From Pseudomonadota bacterium (lineage in GTDB: Bacteria; Desulfobacterota; Desulfobulbia; Desulfobulbales; SURF-16), in NCBI GenBank assembly GCA_018897105.1, contig JAHILF010000028.1, positions 1 to 41,944 on the forward strand: DNA of 41,944 nucleotides, in the 5' to 3' direction. Shown here in pieces: positions 11,756 to 38,786 of this stretch (positions are counted from its first letter, which is position 1; each line of letters starts with the position of its first letter). The position numbers and the translations under genes were made by a program. The notes beneath the pieces were generated by a model. It had not been told where the DNA came from. It was given only the letters and a program-made list of their open reading frames with translations, and did not search any database.

Positions 11756-12340
11756 TTATTTTAGTGCGCCCATTCGTGCTTTCACAAATGCTGGGTTCAC
11801 GTTAAAAATATCCGCAATATCGTATTCGTCACATCCTTCCCCTATCAGTTTCAAAATTCTTTCTTTGGGCATCAAAAGAGCTCCTGCATATTTCCACGCT
11901 TGCCATTCTGGATCAAGGTATGGCTTAATCTTTCTTCTATCAACTCTGTATAACTCAGTACCGAAGGTTGAAGAAAAAGATTTAAAAGAACTTAGGGCTG
12001 GTAAATGATAAAGGCAATGCGATACTTCGTGAGCAACAGTTGCTCTAAACCTTCTTATTGATACTGTGTCAGTAGCATCAGCCAATTCTTTATGTACAAA
12101 ACTTACTTTTTCTTTAGCATCAGTAAATCCCATGACATTTGTCCCAAGGTGACTTAAGTCGATATATCCTGTTTTTAGGCCAGGTATTATATCCGGCAAA
12201 TCTATCTCAAAGATTGTTTCTATATCTATTTCCGAATTGTCCCTAAAAGCTGCCGGTTGTAATTTCAACAGGAGGAAATGTATGTCTAATTCGATTTGCG
12301 CCTTGCTCTTTGGCTTTACAAGTGGCACCTTATTTGTCAT
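11756..12340 (-). CDS. ImmA/IrrE-family metallopeptidase
   Basis: From the ATG at 12340 (preceded by GGGAGG) the protein has 194 residues. It carries the zinc-binding motif HEVSH at residues 104-108 in ATVAHEVSHCLYHL, the signature of ImmA/IrrE peptidases, which cleave or inactivate partner XRE repressors. Downstream, YLDPEWQAWKYAGALLMPKE is the usual family helix that supplies the third zinc ligand region, and the C terminus (DIADIFNVNPAFVKARM) is a small HTH-like end, also typical. The gene overlaps the upstream XRE gene by 11 bases. The pair is probably a stress- or mobility-responsive switch of the integrated element, or a toxin-antitoxin-like unit. Confidence 0.85.
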   Translation of the reverse strand: MTNKVPLVKPKSKAQIELDIHFLLLKLQPAAFRDNSEIDIETIFEIDLPDIIPGLKTGYIDLSHLGTNVMGFTDAKEKVSFVHKELADATDTVSIRRFRATVAHEVSHCLYHLPALSSFKSFSSTFGTELYRVDRRKIKPYLDPEWQAWKYAGALLMPKERILKLIGEGCDEYDIADIFNVNPAFVKARMGALK

Positions 12341-12722
12341 GGTCAATATTAACCTCCCATTCAACAATGGTTTTTTTGAGTTTCTCACGTAATTCTTGCA
12401 GCTTGTCTTCAGGATGGTTTTCTGTTGCTCGATACAGGCTATAAGCCAAATCGTTATTTTCTCCGAAGATTGATGTTATAAACCCTGTAGCCTTTCCTAC
12501 CGCCCTGTCTGCAGTGGCTGCATTAATCAACTTATCAAGAGCAATATTCAAAACTAACGATAAATTCTCAATGGTTGTTTTGTCTTTTGGTGGTTGTTTT
12601 ATCCCGTTTTCAATTTCAGAAAGATAGCTCGGTGACACCCCAACTAGCTGACCGAGCTTTCGAAGAGTTATCCTCTTCGCCCTCCGCCCATCATTAATCA
12701 GCTTCCCGAACCGCGAATCCAT
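12330..12722 (-). CDS. XRE-family transcriptional regulator
   Basis: The 130-residue protein has a Cro/C1-type HTH at about residues 8-65 (LRKLGQLVGVSPSYLSEIEN, then KQPP). A helical tail follows (ELREKLKKTIVEW). A strong AAGGAGGGAG ribosome site precedes the ATG at 12722. The ImmA-like peptidase gene overlaps its end, so the regulator is probably the substrate of that peptidase and the repressor of its own promoter. Confidence 0.87.
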   Translation of the reverse strand: MDSRFGKLINDGRRAKRITLRKLGQLVGVSPSYLSEIENGIKQPPKDKTTIENLSLVLNIALDKLINAATADRAVGKATGFITSIFGENNDLAYSLYRATENHPEDKLQELREKLKKTIVEWEVNIDHDK

Positions 12723-13324: not shown

Positions 13325-13548
13325 GGAAAATGCACTCAGCCGGCAAAAAAACCCGCTCCTTTGTCGCGCTTCATTTTGCCGCCAGTGATTTGCATCGTTC
13401 TACCCCTAAGATTGCCAATCCGAACATCTAAAATAGTCAAACTGCCCTCTGGTTAGTCTTACTACTGTTGCTATTACGTAGGGGATTTGCAGTGGAAACC
13501 GAATATCCGAATTGTTTCAGGTGATATTATGGCTAATTTTTCCCCGAA

Positions 13549-14153
13549 ATGTCCCTTTTTGATGAAAAGGGCAAGCGGCTTAATCTTACCGACACGGAGC
13601 GCAAGCTTTTCCTCGATGCCTCCAAAGTCGAGACCAGAGAGAATCGGGTTTTCTGCTCTGTCCTTCATTACACCGGCTGTCGGCTTTCTGAAGCTCTGGA
13701 GCTTACCCCGCGGCAAATCTCCATGCAAGAGCAGGCGATCATTATCAGGACCCTCAAAAAAAGAAAACGCGATAAACAGGGGCGGGAGAAAAAGCCCCAA
13801 TTCCGCTCTGTTCCCGTGCCTTCCAACGTGGGTGATTTTTTTTGATTTAGTGTTTGATCTTCGGCGCCGGCAGCAAAGGAATAATGCTCAGCCCTTTTGG
13901 AAAATGAGCAGGACATCCGCCTGGAGAATGATAAAAAAGGTTATGGATCGTGCCGGGATCAGCGGCCTCCAAGCCACACCTAAAGGCCTCCGACATGGCT
14001 TTCGGAATTGCAATGGTCACAAGCGAAAATCCTTTGCCCCTCCATATTCTGGCCGATCTCATGGGCCATTCTTCAACCGCCACAACGGAAATTTATACGC
14101 GGGTCCTTGCCGGCGAAAAGCAAAAAATGGTTTTGCAAGCCTGGAAAGGATAA
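13549..14153 (+). pseudogene. Tyrosine recombinase/integrase broken by two single-base frameshifts
   Basis: The short integrase starts MSLFDEKGKRLNLT and has the first catalytic Arg in HYTGCRLSEALEL. The frame breaks in a T8 run near 13836-13843, continues in a second frame (FDLVFDLRRRQQ...) to the KGLRHGF box, then breaks again by one base near 14002 and ends in a third frame with LADLMGHSSTATTEIYTRVL, which holds the His and the Tyr nucleophile. All catalytic boxes are therefore present but split over three frames. Without correction no functional enzyme is made. A sequencing error in the T run could explain one break but not both. The enzyme probably once moved the element whose scars lie at the tRNA halves. 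Confidence 0.85.
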
Positions 14154-14204
14154 AAATGGTATATTTAATATTGCATTAAAATGCAAAAGGCATATACATA
14201 TAGT

Positions 14205-14468
14205 ATGGAATTTAGATTTGACGAAAAAAAGAGTGAGTCCAATAAGCTAAAGCACGGGATAAATTTTTATGAGGTTCAAACCCTGTGGGATGATTTGGAC
14301 TTGCTGGAAATCCCGGCTAAAACAGTTGAGGATGAAAGCCGTTGTCTGGTAATTGGGAAAATCGGCAACAAACACTGGTCGGCTATTATTACTTACCGGG
14401 ATGATACTATAAGAATTATTTCTGCCAGGCGTTCCAGGGAAAAGGAGGTTCAATACTATGAAAGCTAA
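14205..14468 (+). CDS. brnT: BrnT-family toxin (DUF497)
   Basis: The 87-residue product begins MEFRFDEKKSESNKLKHGIN, the standard opening of BrnT RNase toxins (F.WDE.K...N..KHG), and ends with the family's RIISARRSREKEVQYYE core. I use the ATG at 14205 because it fits the family length; an in-frame ATG at 14181 would add eight residues, and neither has a clear ribosome site. BrnT is a RelE-fold ribonuclease that BrnA neutralises. The gene lies 51 bases after the broken integrase and its end overlaps brnA by 11 bases. Confidence 0.88.
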   Translation: MEFRFDEKKSESNKLKHGINFYEVQTLWDDLDLLEIPAKTVEDESRCLVIGKIGNKHWSAIITYRDDTIRIISARRSREKEVQYYES

Positions 14469-14682
14469 AGAATTTGACAAAAAATTTGAAGCCGGCGAGG
14501 ACATGACGGATGATCTTGACTTTTCACAAGCCCGACGGGTCAATCAAGAGCCTAAAAGAGTCAATATAGACTTCCCGGCCTGGGTAGTAGAAAGGCTCGA
14601 CAAACAATCCAAAAGACTTGGAATAACAAGGCAGGCCCTTGTTAAAGTTTGGATTGCGGAGAAGCTTAAAGAGGCTGTTTGA
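14458..14682 (+). CDS. brnA: BrnA-family antitoxin (ribbon-helix-helix)
   Basis: The 74-residue protein ends with a CopG/Arc-type ribbon-helix-helix: the strand RVNIDFPAWVVERLDKQS and the helices RLGITRQALVKVWIAEKL. The N terminus (MKAKEFDKKFEAGEDMTDDL) is typical of BrnA, which binds the toxin and represses the shared promoter. AGGAGG lies eight bases before the ATG. With brnT it forms a complete type II toxin-antitoxin pair next to the integrase remnant, where it may have stabilised the element. Confidence 0.88.
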   Translation: MKAKEFDKKFEAGEDMTDDLDFSQARRVNQEPKRVNIDFPAWVVERLDKQSKRLGITRQALVKVWIAEKLKEAV

Positions 14683-14903: not shown

Positions 14904-17900
14904 ATGAGCAGCGAAGAAACAAAGAATCTTATTGGCCATTACATCGACAACTGCGATGGCACGGTTACAGATACACGCACCGGCCTGATGTGGATGCGTT
15001 GCGTTATGGGCCAGATTTGGGATGGGAAAAGCTGCCACGGAGAGGCCAGAAACTTCACTTGGGATGGCGCAAATAAACTCCGCCATAACTCTACCTTTGC
15101 TGGGTGTGATGACTGGCGGCTGCCAGATATTGATGAACTGAAGACGCTTATTGATAGGAGCCAAGACAATCAAGCAATTGACAATAGAGCATTTCCAAAT
15201 ACTCCTCGATCACTTTGTTGGTCTTCGTCGCCGTATTCCTTCGATTCCAACTACGCGTGGGTCGTCAACTGCTACAGCGGCAATGTTTACAATGTCAGCC
15301 GGAACGACTACAACTCCGTCCGTCTTGTGCGGTATGGCCAGGGGGTAAAATCTATGGGCGAAGTAACTCTTCAGCCCTTGCCAGCCAAAGTACTTCCATG
15401 GTTTAAAATGCCATGTGATCAGGCATTGGTTTTAGAAATAGAAAAAAGCAGCCCAGAAATTAACACGAATAAAGCCTTTGATGAAATTATGGCGTTCCCA
15501 GCAATACAGCAACTAATTCCGATTGCCATAGAATCAGGGCAACCAATCACATCTTTTTGTAATGATCATTACAAAGAATTATGTTTTTCCTACAATGAAT
15601 TATTTCAAATCTTGAATTTTCTCATTGAATGTTGCCAAATTGATTACAGTTCCGGGATTCTTTCTCAAGTTTTGAAGCTGCATAAAGACCAAGATATTTG
15701 GCGAAAACGGCCACAAATGGATCGGATGTTAGAAAAAATAAGACATATTGTCTTGACATCTTCCTCGCGAAAAAAAAACCAGCCCCTAAATCAAAGCAGC
15801 TCTTCGCTCCATACATCTCTGGATCCTTCCCCAGAAAATGAATCTTGCCTCTTCGATCCACTATCTGTCGATGCGTTGCCAACTGACGACCCGTCGTATA
15901 ATAGTATGCCTCTTGTCTCTTACGATGAATCTGCACCAGGATCATGGACCGATCTTATTGGTAGTTCATCATTATCAGTTCGCGCCACCAATGTCTTACT
16001 GAATAATTGTGCATCCCTTGAGGACTTGCTCTCTTTGGATCACACGGCACTATTAAATTTTAAAAACTGTGGGAAACATACAGTTACGGAGATAATCGAA
16101 TTTCAAAACAAAATGCGGGCAGGAGGATTTCCTCCTGCCCTACCTCTTCGACCACTGGCTCCCCCTGTGGCTGATATTTTAAAGCTTCCGCCCTCCGAAG
16201 AATCCCTGCGGCTATTGCCAATATTTAGCTCAAAGCTACTTGACTGTATATCCGTAAACGAGTTGCATGAAGGATTTCAAGTAGAAATGCGATTAGCTGA
16301 CATCGTTCTATCTGTTAGAGCAGCCTCGGTACTTCATCGTCTTGGATATAAAACAATTGGTGAAATAATGTTTATTCCAGGGGCAACTCTCCTCAAAGAA
16401 AAAAACTTTGGCCGAAAATGTTTCAACGAAATCCAAGATGTCATAAAGAAAATTGTTATTCAAGGGAATAACCAGTCGGGGAGTCTTGCGGATAAGCTTG
16501 ATTTTTCAAGCTATGCAGCTATGGTAGAAAGCTTTACTCACCATTGTCTACAAAAGAAAAGTCAGGAACTTGTGAGCAAGAGGCTGTGTTTTCAAACAGA
16601 AAAAATACCAACCCTTGAGCAGTTAGGTGAACAACTTGCCATCACCAGGGAAAGAGCTCGGCAAATTTTAAAAAAGGGGTATGCAACTCTAAAAATTAAA
16701 ACTAATATAGATTTGTTAAAAGGGTTTAGGGAAAGTATTGACACTGTTGTGACAATCGGCGGCGGCATCATCACCCTCGGAGGGTTGTCCACTGCTCTGC
16801 AAGAAAAATATGGCTGGCTCTCCCCCCCCAACCCTCCAGCACTTGGACAATTGCTCTCACTTTTGAAGCCGAACCAATTGTTTGCAGGTGCTGAGGATTT
16901 AGTAATGGTCGAGTGCGAGTGTCTCACATGCGAAAAACCATTCGAAAAATTATTATCCTTGGATTTTGAAGAACATGAATCATTCCATATTCGAGTTGCT
17001 TCAAGCAATCTCGCCAAACATTGCCAGGAGAATTGTGTTGTCAAGCCAGTACAAACTTTCCATCAGGCCTATATTGAAAGGTTGATTAGACGCACGAATG
17101 GCAAGTACGTAATTCATAATGATCTGATTATGCCAAGAGACACATGGCTGCCTCGCTATGGTGTCAAGTTGGAAGACATCATTATTCATGTGCTTGAACG
17201 AAATGGCAAGCCCATGCATTTCAGTGAAATTACGCCAATCATTCAAAAAGAAAACATAACGCATTCGGATATTTCAGACCATAACGTTCACGCGGCGTTA
17301 ATGCGCTTTGATACAGTAGAAATAACAAACAGGGGGACCTATGGACTAAAATCTTGGGGAATGGGTGGGTATCGATCAGTTTCCACTGCCATCGAAGAAC
17401 TTCTTGATGCGAGTGACCGCCCGTTGCGAAGAGCAGAGATCAATCAACAGCTTGGCCTTGAATTCTCAGAATTTAACATTTCGGCGTCTCTCGGCACGGC
17501 AACTCGATTTGTTAGTGTCGGAGAAGGATTTTATGATCGCCCGGAGAGGTGGCGTCAACGCACCTACCAGAGTTTGATTGAGCAACTTCCGAAGCCCTTG
17601 GCCGAATTTGCTCGCTACCTTGTCGGCAACAATAACTACTCATACAAATTTGTCTTAGCCCTCGTATTTGTCCGGGGAATGGATGAAAATGGCTCATTTT
17701 ATCTGCCGACACTCAAAGAAAGATTTTTCAGTTTTTACCTGAGCAGAAAAAAAAGGGGGCTTATTGTCGAAATAGATTCCTCCATCATCAGCCGGATTGG
17801 TGAAATAGAGGATAGTGTGATCAAAAATACTGCTGCCGATAAGCCAATGACTAGCTTTTTAAGCTCTCCTTTTTTTGTACAAAATGGCTCTGCAATTTTT

Positions 17901-18128
17901 CTTCAAGGCGATCTGGTTTCTTTGTTGTCAGACCTTTCTATCCGGAATTTATTTATTGTCATTATGTTGAAAAAAATTGATGATTATTTCGCCGAACTTA
18001 CCCCTGCCGTATTTCATGGGGTAATCACTGGTAAGACCGAACCAGTTTTTGTTTCTGGTGATGATGACAATACCGCATCGTCTTCCATTACCATCAAAAA
18101 GAAAGACAGGGGTAAGATCCGGCTATGA
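14904..18128 (+). CDS. BREX-linked multidomain protein: DUF1566/C-type-lectin-like domain fused to alpha-CTD, sigma-4 and HARE-HTH-like modules
   Basis: The protein has 1074 residues. Residues ~10-150 are a DUF1566 (Lcl_C, formylglycine/C-type-lectin-like) domain: TDTRTGLMWMRC, WDGANKL, DDWRLPDIDELKTL, CWSSSPY, YAWVVN, SVRLVRYGQ. Residues ~346-405 (LSVRATNVLLNN... LLSLDHTALLNFKNCGK) and ~461-520 (LSVRAASVLHRLG... NFGRKCFNEI) are helix-hairpin-helix modules like the RNA polymerase alpha C-terminal domain. Residues ~555-600 (LEQLGEQLAITRERARQILK) match sigma-70 region 4. Residues ~750-820 (LEDIIIHVLERNGKPMHFSE... GTYGLKSWG) look like HARE-HTH, followed by another winged-helix-like segment. The stop overlaps the BrxP start by ATGA, so it is coupled to the BREX genes. 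I infer a DNA- or RNA-polymerase-binding regulator or sensor of the system, with the lectin domain as ligand-binding part. No signal peptide is present, so it acts in the cytoplasm. The start has only a weak ribosome site. Confidence 0.75.
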   Translation: MSSEETKNLIGHYIDNCDGTVTDTRTGLMWMRCVMGQIWDGKSCHGEARNFTWDGANKLRHNSTFAGCDDWRLPDIDELKTLIDRSQDNQAIDNRAFPNTPRSLCWSSSPYSFDSNYAWVVNCYSGNVYNVSRNDYNSVRLVRYGQGVKSMGEVTLQPLPAKVLPWFKMPCDQALVLEIEKSSPEINTNKAFDEIMAFPAIQQLIPIAIESGQPITSFCNDHYKELCFSYNELFQILNFLIECCQIDYSSGILSQVLKLHKDQDIWRKRPQMDRMLEKIRHIVLTSSSRKKNQPLNQSSSSLHTSLDPSPENESCLFDPLSVDALPTDDPSYNSMPLVSYDESAPGSWTDLIGSSSLSVRATNVLLNNCASLEDLLSLDHTALLNFKNCGKHTVTEIIEFQNKMRAGGFPPALPLRPLAPPVADILKLPPSEESLRLLPIFSSKLLDCISVNELHEGFQVEMRLADIVLSVRAASVLHRLGYKTIGEIMFIPGATLLKEKNFGRKCFNEIQDVIKKIVIQGNNQSGSLADKLDFSSYAAMVESFTHHCLQKKSQELVSKRLCFQTEKIPTLEQLGEQLAITRERARQILKKGYATLKIKTNIDLLKGFRESIDTVVTIGGGIITLGGLSTALQEKYGWLSPPNPPALGQLLSLLKPNQLFAGAEDLVMVECECLTCEKPFEKLLSLDFEEHESFHIRVASSNLAKHCQENCVVKPVQTFHQAYIERLIRRTNGKYVIHNDLIMPRDTWLPRYGVKLEDIIIHVLERNGKPMHFSEITPIIQKENITHSDISDHNVHAALMRFDTVEITNRGTYGLKSWGMGGYRSVSTAIEELLDASDRPLRRAEINQQLGLEFSEFNISASLGTATRFVSVGEGFYDRPERWRQRTYQSLIEQLPKPLAEFARYLVGNNNYSYKFVLALVFVRGMDENGSFYLPTLKERFFSFYLSRKKRGLIVEIDSSIISRIGEIEDSVIKNTAADKPMTSFLSSPFFVQNGSAIFLQGDLVSLLSDLSIRNLFIVIMLKKIDDYFAELTPAVFHGVITGKTEPVFVSGDDDNTASSSITIKKKDRGKIRL
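15240..15317 (+). other. DGR variable-region-like codon stretch in the lectin domain
   Basis: This covers residues 113-138 of the lead protein. Apart from GCG, TGG and CGG, the 23 codons here all end in C or T, 19 of them in C, and read as AAC, TAC, TCC, TTC, GTC, TGC, AGC, GAC or GGC. That is the pattern produced when AAC codons of a template repeat are mutagenised at adenines by a diversity-generating retroelement. The flanking SSPY, YAWVV and VRLVR segments are those seen in DUF1566 targets of such elements. No template repeat and no reverse transcriptase lie in this window. Confidence 0.5.
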
Positions 18129-19720: not shown

Positions 19721-20632
19721 ATGGCTAAATTTGAATTCGGTTTCGAGGAAGCATGGCTTCGCCTGATCATCAAAAAAATTCCCAATCACCCTAATCTGTT
19801 CTTGCCAAGCGCCGTGGAACAGGCCCAAACAATCCTGCGGGTGGGAAAATTGAAAGTTGGCGCAGCAAGGGCCTGGGCTGAAGCGGCTGGGGTTATAATT
19901 AAGAAAAAAAAACAATTTATTTTAACCCCGTTAGGTAATCTCATCAAGCACCACGACCCGGACATGGATGATGACGGCATCTGGTGGGCTCTGCACTATA
20001 ATCTTGCGCGCCAAAATAGTCCTGCCTGGTTTTATGCCTTTTACTGCAATGAATTTACAAGTGATATTTTTGATCGGGGCATGCTGGAGAAGGAGTTACG
20101 GGCCTGGTGGGATCGAGGCCACGAAAAGCCCATGACTGACAGCATTTTTGATAAACTCGTATTCTCGCCCTTGAAACAGGCCTTTGACGGCACGCGCCTT
20201 GGTAACGAATTCGGATTTTTCGCCCTTCAAGAAGGCAGCCGCTTTTGCCGGCAGGCACCTGGCCACCGATTACCCCCTGCGGCCATTGTAGCCTATGGTT
20301 TGCTGGATTGGGCAAGGCAACAGCAAAGACAATCCGTGCATCTTGAAAAACTTCTGGGAGCTTGGGGTATCGGCAGGATTTTTAGGCTTGATCGGACATC
20401 TCTTGATGAAATTCTTATCCAAATTGGAGACAAGTACAACAAGCAAGTGGGGTGGGTCAGCCATACTGCCGGACTCAATTCGGTTTCCATCATGGATTTG
20501 CCTCCCTTAACACTAATAAGCGCTCACTATTATGAACTTGATGGTGAATCTCCCTCCAGTGCGCTGGAGAAGGGTAAAGCTGAGGTCCTTGAGCTTGGAA
20601 AAATGCAGGCTGATTTACCGCTGTTTTCATAG
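19721..20632 (+). CDS. DUF4007-family protein
   Basis: The 303-residue protein carries the DUF4007 pattern: an opening FEFGFEEAWLRLIIKKI, LRVGKLKVGAARAWAEAAG, LTPLGNLIKHHDPDMDDDG followed by IWWALHYNLARQNSPAWFYA. This family commonly sits next to PAPS-reductase/DndC-like genes in defence loci, as here (six bases after brxP). The N-terminal half looks like a winged helix, so it may bind DNA. Its biochemical role is unknown. It has no enzymatic motif that I can see. The start ATG at 19721 follows GAAAGGAAAG closely. Confidence 0.78.
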   Translation: MAKFEFGFEEAWLRLIIKKIPNHPNLFLPSAVEQAQTILRVGKLKVGAARAWAEAAGVIIKKKKQFILTPLGNLIKHHDPDMDDDGIWWALHYNLARQNSPAWFYAFYCNEFTSDIFDRGMLEKELRAWWDRGHEKPMTDSIFDKLVFSPLKQAFDGTRLGNEFGFFALQEGSRFCRQAPGHRLPPAAIVAYGLLDWARQQQRQSVHLEKLLGAWGIGRIFRLDRTSLDEILIQIGDKYNKQVGWVSHTAGLNSVSIMDLPPLTLISAHYYELDGESPSSALEKGKAEVLELGKMQADLPLFS

Positions 20633-20643
20633 GAAAGAATACA

Positions 20644-21072
20644 ATGCAACTACGCAACCTTTTTATAGAGAAATGGCATCGATGCAAAGATCACCGCTAT
20701 CCGGTCATGCTTATCATCCCTTCTCTCCCTGGCCTTTTCCCTGATACATTAATTGAAGACTTTGCAGGTCTTGTGGAAGGAAAATCGATTGATTTTGCAG
20801 CTCGGTATCAAGGAGTGTTAGAAACATTTTTGACTTGGGGCGGAGTCCAGGTGGAACTTCGTAGTTTATCTCTTTTAACACCAATAGTTGTCTCTAATCT
20901 TGAACCATTTTACAGTAAGTGGCCCCCTGCTGAAAGGTTAGATTTTCTACGTTATATATTACGAACAGAATCGGCGAATGGGATTGTAATCATCTTATAC
21001 TGTCAAGAAAATTTGGCCGAAATCAGATCAATCGACGAAAACAGCCGGGGCACTATCTGGGCACCTGCATAA
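20644..21072 (+). CDS. Small BREX-operon protein of unknown function
   Basis: The 142-residue protein starts MQLRNLFIEKWHRCKDHRYP and ends IDENSRGTIWAPA. The hydrophobic pattern (VMLIIPSLPG; GIVIILYCQ) suggests an alpha/beta fold, but there is no Walker A motif, so it is not the P-loop protein BrxF. It lies 11 bases after the DUF4007 gene and 16 bases before brxC, clearly in the same operon. Many BREX systems have a small gene just before brxC, and this position suggests an accessory of that ATPase. No further function can be given. Confidence 0.7.
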   Translation: MQLRNLFIEKWHRCKDHRYPVMLIIPSLPGLFPDTLIEDFAGLVEGKSIDFAARYQGVLETFLTWGGVQVELRSLSLLTPIVVSNLEPFYSKWPPAERLDFLRYILRTESANGIVIILYCQENLAEIRSIDENSRGTIWAPA

Positions 21073-24000: not shown

Positions 24001-24892
24001 TTATAATGTGACCTTGTTGCCAGCAGATCCTGCACTTGAACGGGTAAAAAAAGTTGGCATGGCTCTTGGCGCCTGGTGGCGCGCCCAACCTAAACATGCT
24101 CAGATTACATCCTTTGTTTCAGACGAAGCTGATGTGATTCGGGATTACATTTTTAAACCGCTTGCCGAGTTGGAGCCAGACACAGAACAAATACTATTGA
24201 AAGATACTTTTGAACATGTCTTCGATGCTGAGAAAAAGGTGAAGCAAGCGGACGTTGAAAAGTTAATAGATGGAATAAAGACAGAGTTTGAGGGATTGTT
24301 AGTTAAACTGCAAAAACGAATTTTGGATGAATGCCATATGGTATTTGAAGATCAGAATCAAGAAAATAGCACTCTTTCCCTTCATAAATGGTTTCTGAAC
24401 CTTCCAGATGAAAAAAAGAACTTTGTCCATCATGGGGATCCTGGAGTGTTAGCCAATTTCTGCAGAGAGAATCCTCTAATCGATGCAAATACTCCTGTAA
24501 AGTTGGATGAAAACCCCCTCTTAAAGTTGGCGGAAAAATTGACTGGCTTACAAATACCCTCTTGGTTCGATGATATGATCATTAAATTCAATGCCAAGCT
24601 GGGCGCAGCGAAAGAGTATATCGAAACCTTTGTTCCATCTTTCCCTGTTCCAAGTCCGACTGATCCACCACCGGATATCAGGCCAAATCAAGTCTGCGTC
24701 ACTCACAGCATCAAGGGGGAGAACAAAAGACGTATTATAGAGGTATTGGAGGAGTTAAGCCCCAACGGCCAAGCATTGGAAAATATGCTTAACACGACTG
24801 TTGATCAGATAGGGAGAAGTCTGGATGAGAAGGAAAAAACGGTAATTCTGTATCGCTTTCTGCGGAAACATTTTTTTAGTACGGTTTCCTGA
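21089..24892 (+). CDS. brxC: BrxC/PglY-family ATPase
   Basis: The 1267-residue protein begins MIRNLTEFIKISPGFKAAVN and has a Walker A motif GTYGTGKSHLAL at about residues 65-76. The AAA-type nucleotide-binding region extends to about residue 300, with a FWDEFGNKMEE segment near 245 that fits Walker B. A very long helical remainder follows. Length, N-terminal P-loop and position directly before pglZ identify the BrxC/PglY family, the large ATPase present in all BREX types, thought to drive assembly with PglZ. Its TGA overlaps the pglZ start as TGATG, so the two are made in coupled amounts. Confidence 0.88.
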   Translation: MIRNLTEFIKISPGFKAAVNLRNDRDNLGKVAGYIPTEVAREIILDFAKKLHPTTPDSRSRIVMGTYGTGKSHLALVLLNFFMRPAATQELQLVMEKLDPDTRAVLKQYRQEVPAPYLIVSLYGNEGNIADSLMMGLRRALTAGNLDSLLPPTAFDAAIKRIDDLEENYKDSFVILKQKVEERGHTVGELKTRLAEYQKKFFDLFREIYPSATSGAQFDFLTMLDPVSLYESIVKELRDRHGYSGIAVFWDEFGNKMEEVVKDPTGKEGLDLQAFAESCNASAMNQIHLYLFCHRSLKEYHDISRIALASSHQKLEEDLRKIEGRFKQYILKSTDIETFQLIDGVIIADEQSPGWADLITTFGHYLDSLVQETARLNYFVGFTREELKSTVVHGTYPLHPMAVYSLPAISEKVAQNNRTLFTCLCEDEPGSFKRFLDKASLDLTTTCPPMFTVDQLWEYFAHDIRQQERTASIFRDFEHLKTRLKINDEIGLRILKTVSVFRVTTPTRFKATEDILIYSLNISHEQRDFFRAELARLSDLQSENHILMRLQSDGSYRPAVNGATIPILDKIRKLIEETPEKLGQKSTPYLKSLWVNLPGTEPREATDYGDEFGVSRSLIVEPVSMYQLRESLDNLTKNIGKERHDDGIILAVLCESSSEIEEAKTIARTTLADKQYQQIVLAIPKEPLQLTRLLLEHQALTYLKKNEASLYGEGGELYEEWRIWSDDKHAQLLQLISELLTPEKQNLDYFWQGKFCNIQHNRELKKLATVVMREVFPYCPQIGDPKLAQDDFAGNWGYRNNCRDVVLKLTANNAAETLWKETAAAPQHVINLLLKTNGILRKNQTGDIEISQPDENTHLGANKVWFVISDFLKNARQRPVEMKNLVTRLRRPPYGLKCRVMPIFFATAAHHELAMGNISFEFQRTPKQVEKITTIESDTLEKVFTAPERYKLAYVDVSSNQIAVIAGLAKVYNVTLLPADPALERVKKVGMALGAWWRAQPKHAQITSFVSDEADVIRDYIFKPLAELEPDTEQILLKDTFEHVFDAEKKVKQADVEKLIDGIKTEFEGLLVKLQKRILDECHMVFEDQNQENSTLSLHKWFLNLPDEKKNFVHHGDPGVLANFCRENPLIDANTPVKLDENPLLKLAEKLTGLQIPSWFDDMIIKFNAKLGAAKEYIETFVPSFPVPSPTDPPPDIRPNQVCVTHSIKGENKRRIIEVLEELSPNGQALENMLNTTVDQIGRSLDEKEKTVILYRFLRKHFFSTVS

Positions 24893-27222
24893 TGACAACA
24901 ATTATTTACGATCAATTTGGCCTTCACCCGACTTGTGAAGCTGATTTTATCGTTGAGGAGGATATTCATTACGAGGAGGCCCTTAACCGACTTAAGACTT
25001 CCAAAAAAGAAACACCAACAAATATCGTAGTGAGAAATCCAGCTCTTTTCCATTGGTTTGATGCTCCGGCCAAGCAATTTGGGTGTCAGATTATCAAATT
25101 TGATCCTATCGCAGAATTGAGTAAGCTTTTTAATTACACCACGATAGCCGCCCCTCTTATTCGACATCCTGAATGGATCATCGAGCTTGGATTGTTGGAT
25201 AAGGCCACTCCCGAGGAAATTATTCCCAACGAGCATATGTCTGTATGGCTCAAACGAATATTGCTCGGGTCGGTCTGGAAATCTAATGAACTACTAGACG
25301 ATGGCGACATGGCTGAACTGTTTAATTGGCTTGTAACGCATGACGAACAGTGTTTGCATCCTTTGGCCCGGACGCTTCTTTTCGACCAGATTCAACTTTG
25401 GGGCAAGCGCCATCCAGAAAAGGCTGATCTATTTCGTTGGCTTGGCCATGCTCCGTTCCTAAGGGCAAAATTTGTTATATGGGAACAAGCTGTTCATCAA
25501 TACCCACCAAACCGAATTGCCGAATGGTTCCAGCATGACGATATTTGGTACACTCTCAATTTATTGCCGGGGCGAAAGAAGTGTATTCCCACAATGAATT
25601 TACATGTCAAGCTACCGGAAGGGGTTGCTGTTTTTATACGAACATTCCTTGAAGAAGAATGGAAACGATCCCCGCAAGACGCACTATCAGTCATGACCGG
25701 ACGACTTGATGCCGAAAGGGGATTTCTATTACAAAAACTCCAATCCTATCTTCACCAAGGGATCGCGCTTGAACAAGACGTTTCTGAAAAAATAGCTCAA
25801 TTCCACGAGTTCAATGAAGCCGTCACCCTGGCTCGCCAACTCGTCCCCTTCCAAAATCCTTCCTTTGTCCCTGATACTGCCCCTGTTGAGATAATCCAAG
25901 AGTGGATGAGGGATGAATACCTCCCTTTTTATCGTTCCTGTGCTTTACTCAATAAATTGGAGTTGACCGGCCCCTATGTGGAGAAATTTGAGCACTGGAT
26001 GAAAAAAAATTATCCGGGTTTGTTAATCAATGGGACCGGAATGGCATACCCACAAATTTATCAGTTGAAATCGAGATTAGCTGATGGACCTGTTTTGCTA
26101 TATGTGTTTGACGGGTTGGATTACCTGAATGCCCAAGACGAATTTTTGCCCGCCCTGGAACTTTCCGGCGCCTACCCGGAAGCTGATGTCATTCCATATC
26201 TGACTTTTCTTCCGACTGAAACTTTTATTGCAAAGCCGACCCTTGTCTGTGGCTTGATGAATTCACAAATTCTGCCGGAACGTCCCGACGCTTTATTTTA
26301 TCGTAAATTATTACAAGATTCACTTGGCCTTGCTGAAAACGAAATACGTTCGGCAACCGATAAGGATGCCACACTTGACGAGTTAGTGCAGGAACAAGCG
26401 AAAGCCTATCTCTTTTTAGATAATCAACTTGATCGGGAATATTTGCATAGTGGTCTTAGTCCCTATGTGCGAGGGAAAAAATATTCCATACACCTTAAAA
26501 AACAGGCTGGGGCTATTGTGGAAGCAGTTAAATTTATCAAGGAGCGGTACAACACAAACTTACTGGTCGCGGTATGCAGTGACCATGGTTACACTGAGCT
26601 TCCGCAGAGTGTAACGATATTCAGTATTCCATCCACTACTAAAAGAATGAAAACTCGAAGCATGTTTTCTTCCGATATTACCCCGACTGCTGATAAAACC
26701 CACGGGAACGATATCTGGTGGTTAAAAGCTGGACTGTTTGGGCTGAACGAAGAAATGGCGATACCTGCCGGATATGGATGCTTTGGAAAACGCCCCAAGG
26801 GGGCGTCTCATGGCGGGTGTACGCCGCAGGAAGTTGCAGTACCTTGGTTTTCTTTGACCTTCCAGAAGCCTGAGCCTACTCAGGCCCCGATTATAACCAT
26901 TGAGGGGGAGATCTTCCGCAAGCGGAGGGAGAACCAGTTAATGGTGACGATATCGAACCTGAATAGCTATCCGATATCAATCGTCGAGGTTTCAATAGAT
27001 GGTCTCGGAATTATAACAACTTTTCCTGTGCGAATAGCACAGAAACAGATAGGCAGGATCAACGCCTCTTTCAATGCCGCGACAGTAAATGAAACCATGC
27101 TTGAATTTAAAGGGTTTTGCACTTTTACCCATCGCCAGGGAAAAGAAAAAGTAAAAGTATTGTCAAAGGTTGAAACTAAAGGCGCGATGGTCAATGAGTT
27201 TGACGATGAATTTGAGGTCTGA
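24892..27222 (+). CDS. pglZ: PglZ-family protein (alkaline phosphatase superfamily)
   Basis: The 776-residue protein has the PglZ core in its second half: LLYVFDGLDYLN with the metal-binding Asp near residue 404, a threonine-containing LTFLPTET segment, VCSDHGYTELP near 561 and SHGGCTPQEVAVPWFSL near 640. These match the metal sites of the alkaline phosphatase fold. PglZ is the defining BREX component and is needed for defence and for self-marking in the types studied. A C-terminal beta domain (from about 680) follows the core. It is coupled to brxC upstream and is followed after one base by brxL. Confidence 0.9.
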   Translation: MTTIIYDQFGLHPTCEADFIVEEDIHYEEALNRLKTSKKETPTNIVVRNPALFHWFDAPAKQFGCQIIKFDPIAELSKLFNYTTIAAPLIRHPEWIIELGLLDKATPEEIIPNEHMSVWLKRILLGSVWKSNELLDDGDMAELFNWLVTHDEQCLHPLARTLLFDQIQLWGKRHPEKADLFRWLGHAPFLRAKFVIWEQAVHQYPPNRIAEWFQHDDIWYTLNLLPGRKKCIPTMNLHVKLPEGVAVFIRTFLEEEWKRSPQDALSVMTGRLDAERGFLLQKLQSYLHQGIALEQDVSEKIAQFHEFNEAVTLARQLVPFQNPSFVPDTAPVEIIQEWMRDEYLPFYRSCALLNKLELTGPYVEKFEHWMKKNYPGLLINGTGMAYPQIYQLKSRLADGPVLLYVFDGLDYLNAQDEFLPALELSGAYPEADVIPYLTFLPTETFIAKPTLVCGLMNSQILPERPDALFYRKLLQDSLGLAENEIRSATDKDATLDELVQEQAKAYLFLDNQLDREYLHSGLSPYVRGKKYSIHLKKQAGAIVEAVKFIKERYNTNLLVAVCSDHGYTELPQSVTIFSIPSTTKRMKTRSMFSSDITPTADKTHGNDIWWLKAGLFGLNEEMAIPAGYGCFGKRPKGASHGGCTPQEVAVPWFSLTFQKPEPTQAPIITIEGEIFRKRRENQLMVTISNLNSYPISIVEVSIDGLGIITTFPVRIAQKQIGRINASFNAATVNETMLEFKGFCTFTHRQGKEKVKVLSKVETKGAMVNEFDDEFEV

Positions 27223-27223
27223 A

Positions 27224-28636
27224 ATGAATAAAAAAAATTTAGACTCAAAAATCGAAAATTGTTTTCCAGATGTTTGTGTGCACAAAGGTATTGCGGCAAG
27301 TGTTGGCCTTTCTGGACGTGTGATTCCCGCTTTTGTATTTGATTGGCTTGTTAGCCGTTACCGCGACAGTAGTGGTGGTGTTGATGGTGAAGGCGTCAGA
27401 AATTTTATTGCCCGTTATCTTCCGGACAAGAAACAGAAAGAATCATTGATGTACGAACTGACCACAGGGAATCAATTAAAGATACTAGATGCCTATAGTG
27501 TAAAAGTGCACCCTACCAAAGGTGACCTACAGCTTCGAATCCCTTCTCTCGATATTACCGGTCGGGTACTGGAGACAATTGTGGAGGAAAATTCCCTTTT
27601 GTTGTTCGGTAATGTTTGGGGAAGCGGAACTCTTAAATGGCTTCCCCAAAAAGGCAAGGATGATCGCTTTGAAGTGGTAATGACAGCATTTAAACCAATG
27701 CAAGCGGCGAGCATTGACCTAAATTATTTCCTTAACCAACGACAGCAATTTTCTTCTACCGAATGGCTCGAACTGCTTACTAGGTGCATGGGGTATGACG
27801 AAGATAAGTATTCAGTAAAACAAAAAATGCTTTTGTTGACCAGGCTGATTCCCCTAGTCGAACCACGTGTCAACACCATTGAACTTGCACCTAAAGGAAC
27901 AGGAAAGTCATATATTTTCAGTCAATTATCCCGTCATGCATGGTTGATAAGCGGCGGAGTTGTAACCCGCGCCCAGTTGTTCTATGACATGACTCGGCAC
28001 CAAACCGGAATTATTTCTCGTTATGATGCTATTGTTTTAGATGAAATACAGACCATAAAGTTAAAGGACGAAGACGAAATTGTTGGCGCTCTCAAGGGAT
28101 ATCTTGAGTCGGGAGAATTCCGGGTGATGGGTTTTCACGGTTCTTCGGATGCCGGATTTGTCCTCCTTGGAAATATTCCTATTGAAGATGGTCAGCCGAG
28201 AGATACAAATTATTTTCAAGAATTACCCGGTTGGCTCAATGGACAAGGAGCAACAGCCTTGCTTGACCGATTCCATGGACTGGTTCAGGGATGGGAGTTA
28301 CCGAGGATTGAATCCTCATCACTTTGCCAATGTTTTGCACTTCGGGCCGACTATTTTGGCGAAGTGTTATATGCCTTGCGAAGCTGTCAAGAACACATGG
28401 CATTTGTCAAAGACCATACTGATTCAACCGGGGATTTGCGTGATACTCGTGCGGTACAGCGGCTGGCGTGTGGGTTTCTGAAATTGCTTTTCCCGGATAT
28501 CAAGACCGTTTGTCTGCATGAATTTAATGAATTTTGTTTACAGCCAGCAATTAAACTGCGTTCAAACATCCGTCGTCAGATGTCGATAATGGACTCCGAG
28601 TTTTCGCCCAATATTGCTGAAATAAAGCTTCGCTGA
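27224..28636 (+). CDS. brxL: Short BrxL-like AAA+ ATPase lacking a Lon protease domain
   Basis: I start at the ATG at 27224, one base after the pglZ stop, giving 470 residues; the longer open frame reaches back into pglZ. The protein has the BrxL N-terminal part (KGIAASVGLSGRVIPAFVFD, SRYRD, VRNFIARYLPDKKQKE), a Walker A motif (LAPKGTGKSY, about residue 223) and Walker B (AIVLDEIQT, about 268), with LLGNIPIEDG as sensor region. Type 1 BrxL proteins have about 680 residues and end in a Lon-like protease domain; this one stops at about 470 with no Lon Ser/Lys region. BrxL is a DNA-binding, ring-forming effector in BREX. It closes the operon. Confidence 0.82.
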   Translation: MNKKNLDSKIENCFPDVCVHKGIAASVGLSGRVIPAFVFDWLVSRYRDSSGGVDGEGVRNFIARYLPDKKQKESLMYELTTGNQLKILDAYSVKVHPTKGDLQLRIPSLDITGRVLETIVEENSLLLFGNVWGSGTLKWLPQKGKDDRFEVVMTAFKPMQAASIDLNYFLNQRQQFSSTEWLELLTRCMGYDEDKYSVKQKMLLLTRLIPLVEPRVNTIELAPKGTGKSYIFSQLSRHAWLISGGVVTRAQLFYDMTRHQTGIISRYDAIVLDEIQTIKLKDEDEIVGALKGYLESGEFRVMGFHGSSDAGFVLLGNIPIEDGQPRDTNYFQELPGWLNGQGATALLDRFHGLVQGWELPRIESSSLCQCFALRADYFGEVLYALRSCQEHMAFVKDHTDSTGDLRDTRAVQRLACGFLKLLFPDIKTVCLHEFNEFCLQPAIKLRSNIRRQMSIMDSEFSPNIAEIKLR

Positions 28637-28703: not shown

Positions 28704-28860
28704 GGCCAAATTGAAACAGAATACGGGACTCCAAAAAAGAAAATGCAATCCCCGCCCTGGGGAGCTGGCCGCCGGTCTGGCCGGCGCTGCCCTCGGTGCC
28801 GGGGAATCTGATTGCAGAATTATCAGGTCCGGAGCAGCCAGGGCGATCAAAATGCAATCA
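28704..28860 (+). repeat. Dispersed ~158-bp repeat, copy 1 (52-bp core in orientation A)
   Basis: From GGCCAAATTGAAACAG to TGCAATCA this copy matches the segment 36553-36710 closely over its first ~105 bases, with scattered substitutions. The last 52 bases (28809-28860), bounded by TGATTGCA and TGCAATCA, match the other copy only after reverse complementation. The repeat lies 67 bases after the brxL stop. A short open frame on the minus strand in each copy (ending HFLFWSPVFCF...) gives similar peptides because the DNA is repeated, not because it is a gene. Confidence 0.88.
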
Positions 28861-36552: not shown

Positions 36553-36710
36553 GGCCAAATTTGAAACAGAATACGGGACTCCAAAAAAGAAAATGCAATC
36601 TCTGCCCTGGGGAGTTGGCCGCCGATCTGACCGGTGCCGCCCTCGACGCCGGGGAATCTGATTGCATTTTGATCGCTGCAGCTGCTCCGGACAAAGCGAT
36701 TCTGCAATCA
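36553..36710 (+). repeat. Dispersed ~158-bp repeat, copy 2 (52-bp core in orientation B)
   Basis: This copy is directly repeated with 28704-28860 over its first ~105 bases. Its terminal 52 bases (36659-36710) have the same TGATTGCA/TGCAATCA ends but the inside is reversed: TGATTGCATTTTGATCGC and GCTGCTCCGGAC here appear on the opposite strand of copy 1. About 42 of 52 bases agree in the inverted alignment. Copies 1 and 2 bracket the nuclease/AbiV/J-protein cassettes and the SIR2/TrlF remnant. Confidence 0.88.
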
Positions 36711-38120: not shown

Positions 38121-38390
38121 TCAAATCCCCGGCAATGATGCCTTCACCACCGGCAGTTGATCCCACCTGGTTGTGTACGCCCGGGAAAGGTGATCCCGCC
38201 TGAAGGTCCAGGACTTTTTAAAACCTGAAACAGCATAGCGCACCGTGTTTGCTCCCCACTTCCGGTTGATGCGGTCCAGGGCGTTCATCAGATCCTTGTC
38301 GCTTCTTATCGGGTCAAAGAGACTACGCTGCCGGCATGACGCGGGCATGATCTCCGCCAGCATGACCCCGGCCTTCTGAAAGTTGTCACC
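38121..38390 (-). pseudogene. umuC: umuC 3' fragment (DNA polymerase V subunit, C terminus)
   Basis: On the minus strand about 90 residues match the end of UmuC: DNFQKAGVMLAEIMP, QRSLFDPIRSDKDLMNALDR, INRKWGANTVRYAVSG, then a tail with SRAYTTRWDQLPVVKA. That is the UmuC C-terminal region, outside the polymerase active site. The similarity ends abruptly near 38390, where the nested palindromic element begins. The catalytic part of the gene is not on the other side of that element, so this is a leftover, not a simple interruption. Confidence 0.85.
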
Positions 38391-38401
38391 GCCGGTGCAA
38401 A

Positions 38402-38620
38402 GTGAACCCACCCACCACCGGAAAATGGACCCACCCAGCCGATTTTTTTTTGAGTTGCCCGTGGCAACATTTTTTCTTTCAAAAACCCTCAAGCCTTGTG
38501 TGAAGGGCTTTTGAAAGAAAAAATGTTTTATTACCTGGGGACATTTTGCACCTTTTTTCACCTGTGAGGGGTGGGTCCACAAAAATCGGCTGGGTGGGTC
38601 CATTTTAAACCGGTAGTGAC
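38402..38620. mobile_element. Nested palindromic element (MITE-like)
   Basis: The outer arms at 38422-38447 and 38581-38606 are a perfect 26-bp inverted repeat with the core GGACCCACCCAGCCGAT. Inside, 38466-38492 and 38501-38527 form a second, nearly perfect inverted repeat containing TTTTTTCTTTCAAAA. A further GTGGACCCACCC-like motif occurs beside each outer arm, and ACCACCGG/CCGGTAGTG extend the palindrome. The element codes for nothing. It looks like the joined ends of an insertion sequence or a miniature non-autonomous transposon, and it sits at the break point of umuC. Confidence 0.65.
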
Positions 38621-38786
38621 ACTCTTCCATTATCTCTTTTCGCTGATATTACTCTTAAAAAAACCTTCTCAATTCCTCCCAATTTTTTTTTACAACAACT
38701 CTTCATCACTTTCGTCAGTTACTTGGGTATTTTTTTGTATATTTTTATTATGAGAAGTTGTTGATAATAACCCTACAGTGACCAAT

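What the first reader, a model, noticed from the sequence alone, without database searches (positions are those of the whole stretch)
14904..18128. Lectin-like sensor domain fused to a transcription-machinery-like regulator at the head of a type 4 BREX operon
One open frame joins a DUF1566/C-type-lectin-like domain (residues ~10-150) to two alpha-CTD-like HhH modules, a sigma region-4-like HTH and HARE-HTH-like winged helices, and its stop overlaps the BrxP start by ATGA. Known: DUF1566/Lcl_C folds bind ligands and are targets of diversity-generating retroelements; HARE-HTH and alpha-CTD-like modules bind DNA or chromatin-type targets. Inference: the protein senses a phage or host ligand through the lectin fold and sets BREX expression or targeting. 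I know of no described BREX with this fusion.
Basis: partly seen in the sequence, partly recalled or inferred. Interest (0 to 1): 0.85.

Follow-up and report, generated by a model that had tools for sequence, protein, structure and literature searches.

The report
Lectin-capped, polymerase-like head protein of BREX
The first gene of a sulfur-type (type 4) BREX anti-phage operon encodes one long protein in which a lectin-like binding fold is joined to pieces resembling the promoter-reading parts of bacterial RNA polymerase; relatives of the polymerase-like part sit at this spot in other bacteria, but the lectin cap was seen here only.

Summary
ORF 14904-18128 (+) is one uninterrupted 1074-codon frame overlapping brxP by ATGA. 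It carries Lcl_C/DUF1566 (19-143), two RpoA-CTD-like modules, a sigma region 4 and a HARE-HTH just under its cut-off. Residues 10-146 model as a C-type-lectin-like domain; the best PDB match is the Legionella Lcl C-terminal domain. The operon is a type 4 (phosphorothioate) BREX with split BrxP/DUF4007.

The aCTD-sigma4 core has six close relatives (39-52% identity): brxP follows in three, is absent in one, unreadable in two. Looser relatives head two Firmicutes type 4 BREX operons and three Dnd/Pbe-like operons. Of 27 type 4 BREX loci sampled through BrxP, five have an RpoA-CTD and/or sigma-70 protein at the head. None of 26 other head-position proteins scanned has Lcl_C, the same-genus relative included. 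Codons 1-150 differ in GC3, so the lectin looks like a lineage-specific addition; misassembly is not excluded. No retroelement template was found.

Best reading: a promoter-type DNA-binding operon-head regulator that gained an intracellular ligand-binding cap. Regulation (rather than DNA scanning) and the ligand are inference.

The parts
14904..18128 (+). operon-head protein, 1074 aa, P0001
14958..15332 (+). Lcl_C / DUF1566 C-type-lectin-like domain (residues 19-143), no hydrophobic leader
   Evidence: Pfam E 5e-32; model and PDB match 8q4e; hydropathy
15354..15893 (+). middle region (residues 151-330); blastp match to L270 starts at residue 181; begins at Met151 with AGGGGG upstream, a possible second start
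15921..16133 (+). first RpoA-CTD-like HhH module (about residues 340-410)
   Evidence: second Pfam stretch of RNA_pol_A_CTD (place not printed); NF003516 at 356-402; invariant R360, N363, G390, E396 in 7 homologues
16284..16448 (+). second RpoA-CTD-like module (residues 461-515)
   Evidence: Pfam E 2e-19; PDB RpoA chains; invariant R472, G503, E509
16524..16727 (+). sigma-70 domain 4-like HTH (residues 541-608)
   Evidence: TIGR02393 541-608 E 4e-6; Pfam 569-597; profile against SigA/RpoD E 5e-11
16920..17036 (+). cysteine cluster C673, C676, C707, C711, possibly a zinc site
   Evidence: invariant in 7 of 7 homologues; zinc is inference
17175..17306 (+). HARE-HTH (residues 758-801)
   Evidence: Pfam E 2e-5, just under cut-off; over cut-off in L274
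18125..19714 (+). BrxP PAPS-reductase part with 4Fe-4S region, 529 aa, ATGA overlap with the head gene
19721..20632 (+). DUF4007 / SspB-like protein, fused to BrxP in many other type 4 BREX loci
20644..21072 (+). 142-aa protein without family hit, also present in L073
21089..24892 (+). SspC/BrxC ATPase
24892..27222 (+). PglZ, divergent
27170..28636 (+). BrxL

Best explanation
The gene is the head gene of a phosphorothioate-type (type 4) BREX operon. Its core (residues about 340-890: two RpoA-CTD-like modules, a sigma-domain-4-like HTH, a cysteine cluster and a HARE-HTH) is a promoter-type DNA-binding unit that recurs at this position; in this lineage an Lcl_C lectin-fold domain has been added at the N-terminus. 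Most likely mechanism: the core binds UP- and -35-like DNA (alone or with RNA polymerase) at the operon promoter and sets BREX expression, and the Lcl_C cap, which lacks a secretion signal and so is probably cytosolic, binds a protein or glycan ligand that changes this activity. Shown here: anatomy, conservation of the core, position before brxP, and that no other scanned head has the lectin. Inferred: DNA specificity, regulation, ligand.
For: Seven homologues align over 340-890 with RpoA-type and sigma-type residues kept: R360, R472, E583, R584, R586, Q587 invariant; their profile finds RpoA CTD and SigA/RpoD domain 4 among solved structures. Head gene directly before brxP in window, L073, L270 and L272. 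aCTD+sigma4 heads before brxP also in Sporomusa (L123) and Pseudoruminococcus (L139); a profile built without them still finds them (E 8e-15 and 4e-8). Similar positions hold sigma4 proteins in L208 (one gene away) and L209, and in L212 a sigma-70 protein with regions 1 to 4, whose genome has another RpoD over the family cut-off elsewhere. Lcl_C joined to an intracellular-type domain has a precedent: L179 is TIR_2 + Lcl_C. 28 of 35 frames with an Lcl_C motif from cellular genomes have a hydrophobic N-terminal segment, P0001 has none.
Against: No promoter or binding site was tested. The core is larger than most transcription regulators and is translationally coupled to brxP, which suits a complex subunit as well. 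PglW, a BREX type 2 component, carries a related module. hhalign of the C-terminal parts of window/L073 and the Firmicutes heads was not significant (probability 8%; only two rows on one side, so little power). 22 of 27 type 4 BREX loci sampled lack RpoA-CTD/sigma modules at the head and 14 of 27 lack every module tested. One close relative, L271, has no brxP in the 1 kb that follows it. No other head has the lectin. L179 as predicted by the script has a borderline hydrophobic start (1.64), which a later Met would remove.
Confidence: 0.45

Rival explanations
1. The head protein is a structural, DNA-scanning subunit of the BREX complex, the counterpart of the C-terminal half of PglW in type 2 BREX. 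aCTD, sigma4 and wHTH modules anchor the complex on DNA; the lectin fold adds a contact to an invader protein or a partner. It does not act on transcription.
For: P0001 457-637 matches PglW 800-989 (PDLC02512 E 1e-10) and 457-639 matches NF033442 (E 1.6e-9), beyond the aCTD alone. ATGA coupling to brxP suggests fixed stoichiometry. Rakesh and Krishnan (PMC12839542, sections 23 and 38 read) describe the aCTD-like and triple-wHTH part of PglW and sigma-HTH-like modules as DNA-binding or DNA-anchoring parts.
Against: The PglW-like proteins found in this phylum (L220-L224) show no match to the head profiles, but the loci cut the three long ones short by 130-190 residues and none reaches the PglW cut-off. 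A sigma-70 stands in the same slot in L212. 14 of 27 type 4 BREX loci have no such head, so it is not an obligatory subunit.
Confidence: 0.35
2. The lectin part is a neutral or recent accretion, or an assembly chimera, without a role in BREX; translation may also start at Met151 and leave it out.
For: Lcl_C in 1 of 7 close relatives, and absent from the same-genus homologue L272. GC3 of codons 1-150 is 83 of 150 against 357 of 924 for the rest (Fisher p 1.6e-4); none of 341 overlapping 150-codon windows of the operon genes reaches 83, though the highest is 82. Met151 has AGGGGG 8 nt upstream whereas ATG1 has no such motif. The genome is in 177 contigs.
Against: The frame is open through the junction and the lectin domain is complete. 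Standalone Lcl_C frames such as L155 and L156 end with the same GQ that stands five codons before Met151 here, as expected for a fusion of two genes. The own genome holds no other copy of this lectin DNA at E 1e-5. The AGGGGG falls on codons of the GQG end of the lectin and may be chance.
Confidence: 0.17

Closest known systems
Type 4 (phosphorothioate) BREX, brxP-brxC-pglZ-brxL
   Same: BrxP PAPS reductase, DUF4007, SspC/BrxC ATPase, PglZ and BrxL in this order
   Different: BrxP and DUF4007 are separate genes; a 142-aa gene is added; an aCTD-sigma4 head protein precedes brxP, which the component list in PMC12839542 section 34 does not name; its supplements were not seen
PglW of type 2 BREX (NF033442)
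   Same: RpoA-CTD-like module followed by HTH modules, matched over about 180 residues
   Different: no NERD nuclease or kinase hit here; N-terminus is Lcl_C; far below the family cut-off (36 against 990 bits)
MzaA of the MZA system (NF041931)
   Same: sigma-70 region-4-like segment in a defence operon protein; called a sigma factor in a passage of PMC9523054
   Different: match limited to about 65 residues, 30 against 800 bits; the operon genes match BREX families instead
Lcl C-terminal domain / DUF1566 (PF07603)
   Same: sequence E 5e-32 and fold, 8q4e
   Different: no hydrophobic leader; fused to DNA-binding modules
BrxR, the WYL regulator of type 1 BREX (title and abstract start of PMC9122589 seen; the rest recalled)
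   Same: regulator linked to a BREX operon
   Different: no WYL hit in P0001; different modules

Membership tests
Type 4 BREX | BrxP PAPS reductase with 4Fe-4S region | tested here: met
   PDLC02510 E 3.5e-82, PF01507 E 5e-34, weak Fer4 hits below cut-off
Type 4 BREX | DUF4007 | tested here: met
   PF13182 E 1e-23, separate gene
Type 4 BREX | BrxC/SspC ATPase | tested here: met
   SspC E 1.6e-84, BrxC E 5e-19
Type 4 BREX | PglZ | tested here: met
   weak: NF033445 E 3.7e-7, below cut-off; PDLC02549 E 7e-7
Type 4 BREX | BrxL | tested here: met
   PF13337 E 1e-99, PDLC02505 E 1.5e-139
Type 4 BREX | phosphorothioate in DNA and phage restriction | not testable with these tools
   needs mass spectrometry and phage assays
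Lcl_C / DUF1566 domain | profile match over cut-off and C-type-lectin-like fold | tested here: met
Lcl_C / DUF1566 domain | ligand binding | not testable with these tools
   glycan or protein binding assay needed
DGR variable protein | template repeat and reverse transcriptase linked to the gene | tested here: not met
   best other blastn hit to 15180-15350 in own genome is 16 bases, E 0.7; three RVT_1 hits, all on contigs without Lcl_C hits
PglW | NERD nuclease and kinase domains | tested here: not met
   no such Pfam hit in P0001
Sigma factor (sigma-70) | region 2 for core binding and -10 melting | tested here: not met
   only region 4 found
HARE-HTH | Pfam cut-off | tested here: inconclusive
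   25.3 of 25.9 bits here; over cut-off in L274

The most novel reading that the evidence does not exclude
Some DNA-modification defence operons (type 4 BREX, Dnd/Pbe-like CxC-ABC operons, and through the shared module PglW and MZA) carry a promoter-mimicking protein that joins the UP-element reader (aCTD) and the -35 reader (sigma4) in one chain without core polymerase, so that the defence is placed on, or switched by, promoters, including those of the invader; the N-terminus is an exchangeable sensor slot which in this lineage holds a lectin fold that recognises a phage or host macromolecule inside the cell.
Probability: 0.2. Interest if true: 0.85.

Novelty: new variant of a known kind. Interest (0 to 1): 0.58.

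Why it matters
How type 4 BREX is controlled, and how it notices invaders, is to my knowledge open. A head protein built from the two promoter-reading modules of RNA polymerase gives a concrete, testable candidate, and its recurrence before brxP in distant bacteria, with an extra RpoD-like sigma factor in the same slot once, suggests that parts of the transcription machinery are a theme of these operons. The lectin cap would be a BREX component with a ligand-binding fold of the class that diversity-generating retroelements use elsewhere (papers of that kind seen as a listing), although no retroelement was found here.

Tried and rejected
DGR target: rejected for this genome. Relatives on plasmids or viral contigs: no plasmid match to residues 151-1074 at E 1e-5; none in IMG/VR by the A3 profile or by P0001, and none by the lectin alone. 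The only viral hits were to the lectin through a four-row alignment, 15 loci; 15 of their 16 frames with the motif lack a hydrophobic N-terminus. Raw counts with the regulator mislead: 305 of 395 and 251 of 257 genomes 'match', nearly all short hits that I take for housekeeping RpoA or sigma factors; I followed only matches far above that level (2; 7 besides the window, one of them already known). Both lists were cut by the tool, best first. Residues 1-332 in 297 phylum genomes gave Lcl_C matches only among the rows shown (89 genomes), nothing covering the middle region. Common ancestry of the C-terminal parts of window/L073 and the Firmicutes heads: not supported. PglW-like proteins of this phylum: no match to the head profiles (loci truncated). 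Full-length structure: uninformative. Of the 80 loci, 64 gave no PglZ or BrxL hit with my profiles and were not among the three cut-short loci that I treat as BREX (L073, L126, L152); by gene content and title they look like SSP systems or archaeal PAPS reductases, and I did not count them as BREX. My head profile was trained on L123, L139 and L150, so its hits to them prove nothing; the leave-out profile d4 found L123 (8e-15) and L139 (4e-8, its single domains weak) but not L150. Literature: searches showed no paper holding DUF1566 among the rows listed (15 each of 1,779 and 413); the HARE-HTH paper PMC3272235 is not held.
Full report
What is there. The frame at 14904-18128 is real: 1074 codons, ATG start, no stop inside, with an ATGA overlap to brxP. 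Pfam finds Lcl_C at 19-143 (E 5e-32), two RpoA-CTD stretches (best 461-515, E 2e-19), sigma region 4 (569-597, E 5e-5) and HARE-HTH (758-801, E 2e-5), the last two a little under their cut-offs. NCBIfam agrees: RpoA models at 459-520 and 356-402, RpoD C-terminal model at 541-608. A profile of seven homologues hits RpoA CTD chains (best E 2e-10) and sigma-A/RpoD domain 4 (best E 5e-11) in the PDB. So the polymerase-like modules are not chance.

The lectin part. A model of residues 1-339 made with 14 viral-contig Lcl_C rows has residues about 10-146 at high confidence apart from one loop; the rest is poor. Foldseek's best match, and the only one under E 0.001, is the Legionella Lcl C-terminal domain, followed by C-type-lectin-like folds. 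The protein has no hydrophobic N-terminus (0.39 on the scale). In that of 51 frames with the motif had one: 28 of 35 from cellular genomes (three of the 35 are one frame seen from three loci, and a few lack it only because the script chose an early start) and 1 of 16 from viral contigs. A fusion with an intracellular-type domain exists in this phylum: L179, TIR_2 plus Lcl_C; its script-chosen start scored just over my hydrophobicity line (1.64).

The operon. BrxP, DUF4007/SspB-like, a 142-aa protein, SspC/BrxC, divergent PglZ and BrxL follow. This fits type 4 BREX, in which the methyltransferase is replaced by phosphorothioate machinery (PMC12839542 section 34, read; PMC11931770, passage). BrxP and DUF4007 are separate genes here; the 779-position BrxP model spans both with one stop between. 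BrxP-model matches at E 1e-30 occurred in 7 of 395 phylum genomes, this one included.

Relatives of the core. In 257 genomes of the class, besides the window and G357 (already known as L071), six genomes stood out with E below 1e-90. Five are window-type heads (L270-L274); the sixth, L275, belongs with L070 and L071. With L073 from the named collection there are seven window-type heads including the window; identity to P0001 is 39-52%, and blastp gives 39-47% for L270-L274. All seven have Pfam RNA_pol_A_CTD, Sigma70_r4 and (some weakly) HARE-HTH hits. brxP follows directly in four (window, L073, L270, L272); in L271 about 1 kb downstream shows no BrxP; L273 and L274 run off their contigs. Only the window has Lcl_C. 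L270 instead has another HhH-like segment at its N-terminus and shares part of the middle region with the window (blastp match starts at residue 181). L272 is from the same genus and has neither. L070, L071 and L275 head operons with an HKD/SF2 helicase (TIGR04095 below cut-off on L071), a DndD-like ATPase, a small protein and a radical-SAM protein (families scanned for L071 only; L070 and L275 by gene order and similar protein starts).

How general. BrxP-based sampling gave 27 distinct loci with BrxP plus PglZ or BrxL by my profiles and readable upstream DNA (I dropped L119 as a copy of L065, L067 for lack of upstream DNA, and loci without a PglZ or BrxL hit, mostly cut short: L068, L069, L073, L126, L152, L207, L218, L219). 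The window and L272 are left out of the 27, L272 because it was found through the head. Of the 27, five have an RpoA-CTD and/or sigma-70-domain protein at the head: L123, L139 (both modules), L208, L209 (sigma4; in L208 one gene away) and L212 (sigma-70 with regions 1 to 4). Seven more have proteins that match the C-terminal part of my head profile without these modules: L066, L149, L150, L210, L211, L214, L217 (L150 was in the training set; L066 was not scanned with Pfam). L216 has a HARE-HTH protein. Fourteen have none of these (13 of the 14 also scanned with Pfam; L213 not); one of them, L206, has a 120-aa sigma4_2/LuxR-type protein 291 bp upstream. Of the dropped loci, L218 has a sigma region 1.1 fragment. 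In L212 the genome holds another RpoD over the cut-off (414 bits) while the BREX-linked one scores 248, under it. Pfam scans of 26 other head-position proteins (2, 7, 9, 8) found no Lcl_C. tblastn of residues 1-160 found nothing in loci L064-L152 at E 0.01. Lcl_C occurs somewhere in three of seven genomes of these loci.

Origin of the lectin. Codons 1-150 have GC3 55% against 39% for codons 151-1074 (Fisher p 1.6e-4); none of 341 overlapping 150-codon windows of the operon genes reaches it, but the highest comes within one codon (82 against 83), and three of the four accessory genes after brxL that I measured are about as rich or richer (54-74%, the fourth 34%). Standalone Lcl_C frames such as L155 and L156 end in the GQ that here stands five codons before Met151. 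This suits fusion of two neighbouring genes. Met151 has an AGGGGG eight bases upstream, ATG1 has no such motif, so a short form is possible. Among 22 genomes of the family no second one has the joint; the only other match is an 88-base stretch (74%) in an Lcl_C gene of G301. A chimera cannot be excluded without reads.

How it may work. The residues that I recall as DNA contacts of E. coli aCTD (R265) and sigma4.2 (R584, E585, R588, Q589) correspond to R472 (and R360) and to R582, E583, R586, Q587; R360, R472, E583, R586 and Q587 are invariant in seven of seven and R582 in six (the E. coli numbers are from memory). This favours binding of promoter-like DNA. Whether the outcome is regulation of the operon or placing of the BREX complex is open; I lean to regulation because of sigma4-bearing proteins and one sigma-70 in the same slot, with the PglW resemblance and translational coupling as the main counter-arguments.

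Known or new. PglW is described with an RpoA-CTD-like domain followed by three wHTH (PMC12839542 section 23), BrxL with a sigma-HTH (passage), a DndH variant with a sigma-related HTH (passage of PMC10853773) and MzaA as a sigma factor (passage of PMC9523054). The word lectin was not found in the main text of the first two papers, and section 34 of PMC12839542 names no such head protein; its supplements were not read. Searches showed no paper with DUF1566 among the rows listed. The head class is therefore a variant assembled from known modules; the lectin fusion is, as far as seen, new but found once.

Noticed in passing
window 28708-28816 and 36558-36666: 109-nt direct repeat, 91% identical, flanking the accessory genes after brxL (Mrr_cat, AbiV-type HEPN, DnaJ-domain protein, AAA/SMC-type ATPase), with 63-nt inverted arms at 28798 and 36659; looks like the edges of an exchangeable cassette.
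   Followed up: no
window 20644-21072: 142-aa gene between DUF4007 and BrxC, no family hit, also in L073; by eye it resembles a small inactive STAND/BrxF-like protein.
   Followed up: no
window 13487-14682: by eye, recombinase-like remnants and a BrnT/BrnA-like pair (14181-14468, 14458-14682) just upstream of the head gene; HTH and ImmA-like genes at 11756-12722 on the minus strand.
   Followed up: no
L212 11127-12608 (-): RpoD-like sigma factor 29 bp upstream of brxP in a type 4 BREX locus of G613; the genome has another RpoD over the family cut-off.
   Followed up: partly
L179 922-1908 (+): TIR_2 domain fused to Lcl_C, 328 aa: a candidate lectin-sensing TIR protein.
   Followed up: partly
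L225 256-819 (+) and L226-L239: viral contigs carry small Lcl_C proteins, all but one of 16 frames without a hydrophobic N-terminus, in several contigs beside radical-SAM-like genes by eye.
   Followed up: no
L275 3287-12311, L071 3538-13117, L070: aCTD-type heads before HKD/SF2 helicase, DndD-like ATPase, small protein and radical-SAM/B12-type protein: a Dnd/Pbe-like operon with an unusual radical-SAM gene.
   Followed up: partly
L273 1-1993 (-): head protein with three RpoA-CTD stretches.
   Followed up: no
window 38121-38630 and 38422-38606: DUF4113 fragment on the minus strand overlapping perfect 26-nt inverted repeats.
   Followed up: no
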